This document shows positions 26,793 to 55,032 of a DNA stretch of 64,000 nucleotides, piece after piece. This stretch comes from Parasphingopyxis sp. (lineage in GTDB: Bacteria; Pseudomonadota; Alphaproteobacteria; Sphingomonadales; Sphingomonadaceae). The stretch lies in the NCBI RefSeq assembly GCF_028279465.1, contig NZ_JANQNS010000008.1, positions 248,001-312,000 of the forward strand, read 5' to 3'. Numbering within the stretch: the first letter of the stretch is position 1; the number at the start of each line of letters is the position of its first letter. The notes under the pieces are model-generated. The model was not told the origin of the DNA and searched no databases. It saw nothing but the letters and a program-made list of their open reading frames with translations. The translations under genes were made by a program, and so were the position numbers.

Positions 26793-26914
26793 GCGCAGCG
26801 CTGTTATGATCGGCCTGTCCGCTTGACTGGTGATTCGAGATGGGTGACCATCGGGAAGTGCGGACCTCAGACAGCCGCTCGCCTGGGCATCACCGCACAA
26901 TCAGGGAGACGCCC

Positions 26915-42390: not shown

Positions 42391-42464
42391 TGGAGCGGGT
42401 GAAGGGAATCGAACCCTCGTCGTCAGCTTGGGAAGCTGCTGCTCTACCATTGAGCTACACCCGC
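42391..42464 (-). tRNA. tRNA-Gly (anticodon CCC), CCA encoded
   Basis: Read on the minus strand, the acceptor GCGGGTG pairs with CACCCGC. The D stem is GCTC/GAGC with the loop AATGGTA. The anticodon loop is TTCCCAA on stem CAGC/GCTG, giving CCC for the GGG codon. The T arm is GAGGG-TTCGATT-CCCTT, and discriminator T is followed by an encoded CCA. The antisense frame of this gene yields the well-known false protein with GIEPSSSAW. Confidence 0.95.
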
Positions 42465-54778: not shown

Positions 54779-54963
54779 TTTGTCAGAAACTTCCTTGCGG
54801 AAGTTCGCGGCACCGGGAGTTTGTTTGTCAGACTCGACCTAGCGGTCGAGCGCGGCACCGGGCCTCTCCCCCTCCCGACCTCCCAAACAGGGTACACTCA
54901 GTGGGAGGTCGGGAGGGGGAGAGGGCCGGTGCCGCGATTTTCCGCCAGGAAAATTCTGACAAA
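54779..54963. repeat. Structured repeat: three hairpin modules around a 35-bp inverted repeat
   Basis: Each module is TTTGTCAGA, then a 7-bp stem with a 4-base loop, then CGCGGCACCGG. Modules begin at 54779 and 54824 in one direction, and one ends at 54963 in the opposite direction. Stems are AACTTCC, CTCGACC and ATTTTCC, each perfectly paired; in module orientation the loops are TTGC, TAGC and TGGC. The outer five stem pairs vary with pairing kept. Modules 2 and 3 are joined by a further 23-bp perfect inverted repeat (54863-54885 with 54902-54924). Outside this element, the 320-base gap between 54712 and 55033 shows nothing. Confidence 0.9.
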
Positions 54964-55032
54964 AGGAATCTCCTCTTCGACAAGCTCGACGCGAACCAAT
55001 AGGAAAAAGCTAAAGGCAGACGAGGACACCCC

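What the first reader, a model, noticed from the sequence alone, without database searches (positions are those of the whole stretch)
54779..54963. Three-module repeat whose hairpin stems vary but stay paired
Seen directly: modules of TTTGTCAGA / 7-bp stem / 4-base loop / CGCGGCACCGG occur three times, two direct and one inverted. The two stem pairs next to the loop are always CC/GG and the loop is always TNGC in module orientation, while the outer five pairs differ in all three and are still perfect complements. Covariation like this means selection for the folded form, as RNA or as single-stranded DNA hairpins. Candidate explanations are a family of REP-like or transposon-end hairpins recognised by a Y1 (RAYT-like) transposase, or a small structured RNA. 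I do not recognise the family.
Basis: partly seen in the sequence, partly recalled or inferred. Interest (0 to 1): 0.72.

Follow-up and report, generated by a model that had tools for sequence, protein, structure and literature searches.

The report
Cross-shaped repeats with mismatched neighbour hairpins
A short repeated DNA element found dozens of times in some Parasphingopyxis genomes folds into a cross with two small side hairpins whose sequences vary but stay paired, and neighbouring hairpins are rarely alike, a rule that points to constraint on the folded shape.

Summary
Window 54779-54963 holds one copy of a dispersed element of the genus Parasphingopyxis. Its core (54824-54963) is predicted to fold as a four-way cross: 9-bp closing helix, two side hairpins (7 bp) and a 35-bp rod. 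In 33 aligned copies 96.9% of cells pair; all 14 side-stem pairs and 10 of 35 rod pairs show double changes, the closing helix none.

New finding: neighbouring hairpins avoid each other. Of 150 left/right pairs, 0 have identical stem arms (11.5 expected) and 4 differ by two bases or fewer (32.8 expected); of 94 tandem neighbours 6 do (20.0 expected). Hairpins one apart show no avoidance, 16 of 83 (19.1 expected).

The rod recurs in other Sphingomonadales and other alphaproteobacterial families. 62 of 66 copies adjoin a 3' gene end. G000 and G005, richest in modules, have no Y1/RAYT transposase; G008, the third, has one with no module beside it.

Best reading: a REPIN-like repeat locked into the cross ("clover") fold, spread by an unknown enzyme. 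Mobility and function are inferred.

The parts
54779..54816 (+). extra (outer, tandem) hairpin module: TTTGTCAGA, 7-bp stem AACTTCC/GGAAGTT, loop TTGC, CGCGGCACCGG
54817..54823 (+). linker between tandem modules (GAGTTTG after the shared GG)
54824..54832 (+). left arm of the 9-bp closing helix (TTTGTCAGA), pairs with 54955-54963
   Evidence: conserved, no double changes
54833..54850 (+). left side hairpin CTCGACC-TAGC-GGTCGAG
54851..54885 (+). left arm of the 35-bp rod (CGCGGCACC plus 26 nt C-rich)
54886..54901 (+). apical loop AACAGGGTACACTCAG (similar core seen in either orientation in other copies)
54902..54936 (+). right arm of the rod
54937..54954 (-). right side hairpin ATTTTCC-TGGC-GGAAAAT (module orientation)
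54955..54963 (-). right arm of the closing helix
55033..55782 (+). neighbouring gene: S4 domain plus FtsJ-like methyltransferase (TlyA-like, name recalled)
   Evidence: Pfam PF01479, PF01728
53849..54748 (-). neighbouring divergent ORF (start codon uncertain); no Pfam family for residues read from 54712

Best explanation
The finding is one copy of a dispersed, REPIN-like palindromic repeat family whose functional form is a single strand folded into a four-way cross ("clover"): closing helix, left hairpin, long rod, right hairpin. SHOWN: the copies, side hairpins and rod by covariation, the avoidance of like neighbours, the position bias, and no Y1 enzyme in the two module-richest genomes. INFERRED: the cross is what a processing or mobilising enzyme recognises, so stems may change only if they stay paired. 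A left hairpin identical to the right one would let the element collapse into one uninterrupted hairpin of about 62 bp, and identical tandem neighbours would cross-pair or slip, so such versions are lost; this keeps many stem classes in circulation. The element is non-autonomous, spread by an unidentified trans-acting enzyme, and tolerated mainly at 3' gene ends.
For: Copies: 117 model matches in G000 and 149 in G005, both strands counted, so roughly 58 and 75 sites (150 candidates scored per genome, so G005 may be higher). Modules in 9 of 60 genomes searched, own included; all 9 are in the genus, where G003 is the exception; 0 reversed-pattern controls. Fold: 33 elements, 96.9% of cells paired against 84.3% shuffled and 39-47% slid; cells with a change on both sides 232 against 79.7; all 14 side-stem pairs and 10 of 35 rod pairs with changes on both sides. 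In 344 modules mean 6.67 of 7 pairs against 4.08 with arms shuffled, 25 distinct perfect stems. Exclusion: left stem x right stem pairing is 43.5%, all 500 shuffles at least as high (mean 57.5%); 4 of 150 inner pairs and 6 of 94 tandem neighbours within two differences, against 32.8 and 20.0 expected, 0 of 4000 shuffles as low in either; one apart 16 of 83 against 19.1. In the single-contig genome G005 alone 0 of 42 against 8.4. Position: 35 convergent, 27 tandem, 4 divergent of 66; intergenic gaps of at least 100 bp with a module 35/30/4, without 9/40/30, Fisher P 2e-7 for convergent. Gain or loss: upstream of tlyA present in G000 and G005, not found in the like-ordered gap of G002, G003, G004, G006, G008, G009; filled versus empty sites L201/L074 and L131/L214.
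Against: No mobilising enzyme was found. No target-site duplication is visible at the two empty-site comparisons. Among 34 G000 and 59 G005 elements compared, no pair reaches 95% identity, so recent movement is not shown. The closing helix has no double changes, and one of the five covariation measures is not exceptional (further pair types 54 against 50.8, 66 of 500 shuffles as high). At 13 G000/G005 shared sites the stem classes are no more alike than chance, which needs conversion between copies or re-insertion at the same spot. Exclusion could reflect repeat instability alone. In two other genera the exclusion test is not significant (G107, 17 elements: 0 similar against 1.9 expected, 41 of 300 shuffles as low; G227, 16 elements: 0 against 0.6, 164 of 300, and its mean left-right score, 6.06, is slightly above the shuffled 5.86). 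One module-rich genome, G008, has a Y1 gene.
Confidence: 0.55

Rival explanations
1. A structured RNA element kept at each locus: a symmetric, two-way 3'-end signal (transcript end, RNase block) between convergent genes. Stems stay paired because each locus needs them.
For: Several elements fill the gap between two convergent stop codons within a few bases (for example L005 0 and 3 bp, L039 3 and 2, L079 5 and 9); 35 of 66 convergent. Sites shared between species while stems turn over. RNA fold z -14.7.
Against: No T-run follows the element's right end in the copies printed. The window's own copy lies between divergent genes, upstream of the tlyA-like gene. 3'-end bias is also what passive tolerance of insertions gives. 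No Rfam family at gathering score over the element.
Confidence: 0.25
2. Mutation bias, not selection: template switching inside each quasi-palindrome copies changes from one arm to the other (mechanism recalled, not tested), and repeat instability removes identical neighbours. No function of the fold.
For: The rod is 98.0% paired with many double changes. Core-less deletion derivatives exist (L040, L046, L054, L076). Exclusion involves nearest neighbours only, as slippage or palindrome loss would give.
Against: 52 modules (40, 8 and 4 in three stem contexts) keep a TC/TC 2x2 internal loop that such correction should remove; 1 perfect counterpart was seen for the commonest, none was counted for the other two. 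Correction would also make left and right hairpins alike, the opposite of what is seen.
Confidence: 0.15
3. A classical REPIN moved by a RAYT (Y1 HUH) transposase.
For: Inverted pair of palindromic modules of REPIN size; the REPIN paper itself discusses a hairpin and a clover fold (PMC3116915, passages read). G006 and G008 of the genus have a Y1 gene, and G008 is module-rich.
Against: No Y1 protein in G000, G005 or G002; at E<=10 only a 13-bit fragment in G000 and G005; absent in 12 of 14 copy-rich genomes; no close module match near the Y1 genes of G006 and G008; end motif TTTGTCAGA, not GTAG or CGTC.
Confidence: 0.05

Closest known systems
REPINs with RAYT transposases (PMC3116915, passages read)
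   Same: Two palindromic modules in inverted orientation around a spacer, intergenic, many copies, clusters and tandem modules; a clover fold is named as one of two alternatives
   Different: No RAYT in the two module-richest genomes; end motif differs; a long conserved rod; left and right hairpins are rarely alike, so the clover is favoured, whereas that paper calls the uninterrupted hairpin the more stable of its two folds
REP/BIME and GTAG- or CGTC-tagged repeats (PMC3733652: start of abstract in a listing and a term search of the text)
   Same: Extragenic palindromic repeats with a conserved tag beside a hairpin
   Different: Tag is TTTGTCAGA...CGCSGCACC; the terms sphingo, novosphingobium, alphaproteobacteria, zymomonas and erythrobacter do not occur in that paper's main text
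Rhizobium intergenic mosaic elements (RIME) and Brucella Bru-RS (seen only as citations; details recalled)
   Same: Alphaproteobacterial palindromic intergenic repeats
Double-hairpin elements of fungal and algal mitochondria (search listing only)
   Same: Small hairpin repeats thought to be mobile; stems reported to vary with pairing kept (recalled)
   Different: Organelle genomes; no exclusion between neighbours known to me

Membership tests
REPIN | two palindromic modules in inverted orientation forming one folded unit | tested here: met
REPIN | RAYT (Y1) gene in the same genome | tested here: not met
   none in G000, G005, G002; 8 of 10 genus genomes without; present in G006 and G008
REPIN | modules flank the RAYT gene | tested here: not met
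   Y1 loci L027 and L030: only matches with 4-5 flank mismatches in the scan
REPIN | left and right modules alike, giving a long hairpin | tested here: not met
   0 of 150 pairs with identical arms; left x right pairing at or below all shuffles
REP superfamily (GTAG/CGTC) | GTAG or CGTC tag at the foot of the palindrome | tested here: not met
   conserved flanks are TTTGTCAGA and CGCSGCACC
MITE (DDE transposon derivative) | terminal inverted repeats | tested here: met
   TTTGTCAGA/TCTGACAAA, 93.9% of cells paired
MITE (DDE transposon derivative) | target-site duplication | tested here: inconclusive
   none visible at two empty-site comparisons between diverged species
Rfam structured RNA family | score above a family's gathering threshold over the element | tested here: not met
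   window: only a tRNA and ZMP-ZTP pass, both elsewhere; five loci: matches over the element are below gathering score, nearly all microRNA models
integron attC site | folded-strand recombination by an integron integrase | not tested
   no integrase search made

The most novel reading that the evidence does not exclude
An alphaproteobacterial superfamily of cross-shaped elements with a conserved rod and interchangeable side hairpins, in which adjacent hairpins obey an incompatibility rule. Stem classes behave like mating-type alleles: each needs a different partner, rare classes are favoured, and so diversity is kept. The enzyme that handles the cross is a yet unknown, non-Y1 type.
Probability: 0.25. 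Interest if true: 0.82.

Novelty: new variant of a known kind. Interest (0 to 1): 0.62.

Why it matters
Palindromic repeats are usually described by the likeness of their copies. Here the informative signal is the opposite: neighbouring hairpins tend to be unlike, and only nearest neighbours are affected. That is a quantitative handle on whether such repeats act as folded DNA, as RNA, or are merely filtered by genome instability, and it can be tested by swapping stems. The shared rod ties repeats of several alphaproteobacterial families together, which I did not find in the papers searched, and the lack of a Y1 enzyme in the module-richest genomes leaves open what spreads it.

Tried and rejected
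RAYT/Y1 link: not supported, with G006, G008, G113 and G224 as genomes that do have a Y1 gene. Rfam at relaxed threshold: matches over the element below gathering score, nearly all microRNA models, read as any long hairpin resembling them. Same-stem elements at G000 contig starts C4 and C11: rejected as fold-back assembly artefacts, since their flanks are exact reverse complements (32 of 32 and 33 of 33 bases). The loci holding them (L109, L110, L090, L102) were dropped from the exclusion counts, as were L003 and L004 (repeat views of the window element), loci of other genera, repeated module strings, and two +/- neighbours with almost no spacer (L083, L120; their stems differ). Counting the two artefacts would give 2 identical of 152. 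L316 is a similar contig-end fold-back. An autonomous copy with a gene between two modules: lone modules in the fetched loci look truncated, deleted or cut by the locus end; no whole-genome search for one was made. In-situ descent of stems at shared sites: not above chance; an earlier automatic version parsed only 8 pairs. In one search I first paired L201/L159 and L214/L131 as shared sites; the alignments show they are not, and L131/L214 served as an empty site instead. Element-free gap counts were first got by subtraction (36 tandem, 8 convergent, 28 divergent); the direct count replaces them. The first exclusion counts used a parser that lost ACGTTGC-class modules, among them one identical tandem pair; one search replaces them. 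Loose matches in the tlyA regions of L177 and L178 were taken as chance. Literature: rod sequences as text, 0 papers; Sphingopyxis plus palindromic repeat, 26 papers, 20 listed; Sphingomonas plus REP, 2 papers; Parasphingopyxis plus repeat, 6 papers; none listed is about this by title and start of abstract. These searches cover open-licence PMC papers only. Integron integrase, reverse transcriptase and DDE enzyme searches were not made.

Full report
OBSERVATION. The window has 3 matches to the flank pattern against 0.12 expected. The second and third modules are the two ends of one element, 54824-54963, joined by a rod; the first is an extra tandem hairpin. The predicted fold is a cross, z -14.7 as RNA (54824-54963) and -13.8 as DNA (54779-54963).

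FAMILY. With up to 3 mismatches the module occurs 80 times in G000 (41 forward, 39 reverse). Of 60 genomes searched, own included, 9 have it; these are 9 of the 10 genomes of the genus (G003, 87% complete, has none), and none of the other 50, with no hit to the reversed control pattern. A scan of the named genome collection returned 51 stretches, from Parasphingopyxis or from MAGs labelled Sphingomonadaceae or Sphingomonadales; G002 contig C1 has the length of the P. lamellibrachiae contig NZ_QRDP01000004.1. A covariance model of 33 full elements finds 117 matches in G000, 149 in G005, 64 in G002, 12 in G004 and 7 in G009, both strands counted and at most 150 candidates scored per genome.

FOLD. 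On 33 aligned elements the cross has 96.9% of cells paired (84.3% after shuffling 3' partners; 39-47% with partners slid by 1 to 3 columns). Each of the 14 side-stem pairs and 10 of 35 rod pairs show changes on both sides; the closing helix is 93.9% paired but has no double change, so it rests on conservation only. Four of the five measures exceed all 500 shuffles; further pair types do not (54 against 50.8, 66 of 500 as high). The structure was chosen from these sequences, which favours it in the slid control. Of 435 modules parsed, 344 have at most 2 flank mismatches and an 18-nt insert; 269 of these pair at all 7 positions, mean 6.67 against 4.08 with arms shuffled, with 25 distinct perfect stems.

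EXCLUSION. Pairing the left stem with the right stem gives 43.5% paired cells; all 500 shuffles are at least as high, mean 57.5%. Counting on 5' arms: identical 0 of 150 inner pairs (11.5 expected); within two differences 4 of 150 (32.8 expected, 0 of 4000 shuffles as low). Tandem neighbours: identical 1 of 94 (5.0 expected), within two differences 6 of 94 (20.0 expected, 0 of 4000). One apart, inverted: 16 of 83 (19.1 expected, 962 of 4000 as low); one apart, direct: 2 of 7 (2.4 expected). In G005 alone, a single-contig genome, 0 of 42 against 8.4. Two apparent same-stem elements at G000 contig starts are assembly fold-backs and were dropped. Shuffles do not model relatedness between copies. 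The effect concerns nearest neighbours of either orientation, as expected if like neighbours cross-pair, slip or form a long palindrome. In two other genera it is not significant: G107, 0 similar of 17 against 1.9 expected and mean score 5.53 against 7.34; G227, 0 of 16 against 0.6 and mean score 6.06 against 5.86, the latter slightly the other way.

NOT SIMPLE CORRECTION. Forty modules keep the stem CCT-TC-..-TC-AGG with a 2x2 TC/TC internal loop, against one perfect counterpart; 8 and 4 modules keep a TC/TC loop in two other stem contexts. Template-switch correction of quasi-palindromes (recalled mechanism) should have removed these loops.

PLACE. Using my own GC3-based gene caller, 66 elements with genes called on both sides (14 more were at locus edges; 3 of the 66 overlap a called ORF) are 35 convergent, 27 tandem and 4 divergent. 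Gaps of at least 100 bp in the same 66 loci: with a module 35 convergent, 30 tandem, 4 divergent; without 9, 40 and 30 (Fisher P 2e-7 for convergent). The window copy is one of the divergent minority, upstream of a tlyA-like gene (S4 and FtsJ domains). At that place G000 and G005 have an element, and none was found in the 520 bp upstream in G002, G003, G004, G006, G008 and G009, which keep the same upstream gene; G001 has a different upstream gene. Of 35 fetched G000 loci (L174, L188-L221), 13 were used as sites shared with a G005 element, a lower bound because only known G005 elements, mostly with short flanks, were compared; in some of the 13 only one flank aligns. Junctions can agree closely (L199/L136), yet stem classes at shared sites are no more alike than chance (same side 6, cross side 7; expected 4.9 and 6.8). 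So either copies exchange hairpins in place or the same spots are re-used.

WIDER FAMILY. The model also hits 90 of 246 genomes of the order, own genus included, at E<=1e-6, in 24 of 71 genera (E-values of this model are rough and the rod drives the score). Of ten loci read first, nine show a rod with a side hairpin on each side in the predicted fold and unrelated hairpin sequences; L237, near a contig start, lacks a clear left hairpin, and L231 has a variant rod. Sixty further loci were fetched and parsed (the output was cut in the middle; of the visible rows L278 and L291 gave a short or misplaced rod). A rod pattern matches 46 of 385 genomes drawn from the class, own genome included, but several of these are poly-C chance matches, as the controls show. 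Of 20 stretches then picked for that pattern from other families, 17 contain both rod arms, 2 were not parsed as rods and 1 is a contig-end fold-back. Side hairpins are clear in some (L310) and not in others (L302), so outside the order only the rod is firmly shared. Three plasmid records (Sphingomonas sanguinis, Novosphingobium resinovorum, Sphingopyxis sp. FD7) carry the rod with no feature listed under it; that collection's gene table is incomplete.

MECHANISM. Against this, G006 and G008 of the genus have a Y1 gene, and G008 is third in module number (63); no close module match lies beside either gene. I therefore favour a REPIN-like repeat that must adopt the cross, with an unidentified enzyme. 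The REPIN paper (passages read) names a more stable hairpin and a less stable clover and suggests that the clover is the one recognised; the exclusion seen here would lock the element into the clover. That link is inference. Recent mobility is not shown: no pair among 34 G000 or 59 G005 elements reaches 95% identity, and two empty-site comparisons show no target duplication.

NOVELTY. Rod text searches found no paper, and searches on Sphingopyxis palindromic repeats, Sphingomonas REP and Parasphingopyxis repeats listed none about this by title and start of abstract. I call it a new variant of a known kind (palindromic extragenic repeats); the exclusion rule is the surprising part.

Noticed in passing
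window 26813-26895 (+): ZMP/ZTP riboswitch (RF01750, 49.4 bits).
   Followed up: no
window 42394-42464 (-): tRNA gene (RF00005).
   Followed up: no
G005 (single contig, 3.67 Mb): Element sites are unevenly spread: of 68 sites (100 modules typed from the capped listing) 32 lie in 2.5-3.0 Mb and 2 each in 0.5-1.0, 3.0-3.5 and 3.5-3.67 Mb.
   Followed up: partly
G000 contigs C3, C4, C6, C9, C11, C12, C13, C15, C16: These contigs begin or end within about 200 bp of an element, so the repeats seem to break the assembly; two ends are fold-back artefacts.
   Followed up: partly
Parasphingopyxis modules (40, 8 and 4 copies in three stem contexts) and G107 loci such as L320, L322, L324, L332: A TC/TC 2x2 internal loop recurs in several unrelated side-hairpin stems and in a second genus; its meaning is unexplained.
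   Followed up: partly
L174 and L175, upstream of tlyA: G000 and G005 elements at the same site look like inverted versions of each other (module order, stem classes and apical loop all reversed), with a paired change CTCGACC to CTCGAAC; over 13 sites inversion is not above chance.
   Followed up: partly
L040 958, L046 5427, L054 406, L076 280: Core-less copies in which much of the rod between the two modules is missing.
   Followed up: no
L180 (G006) upstream of tlyA; window near 54970-54990: A different sequence (CTTCGACAAGCTC...) lies beside the elements, probably another sphingomonad repeat (kind recalled; seen).
   Followed up: no
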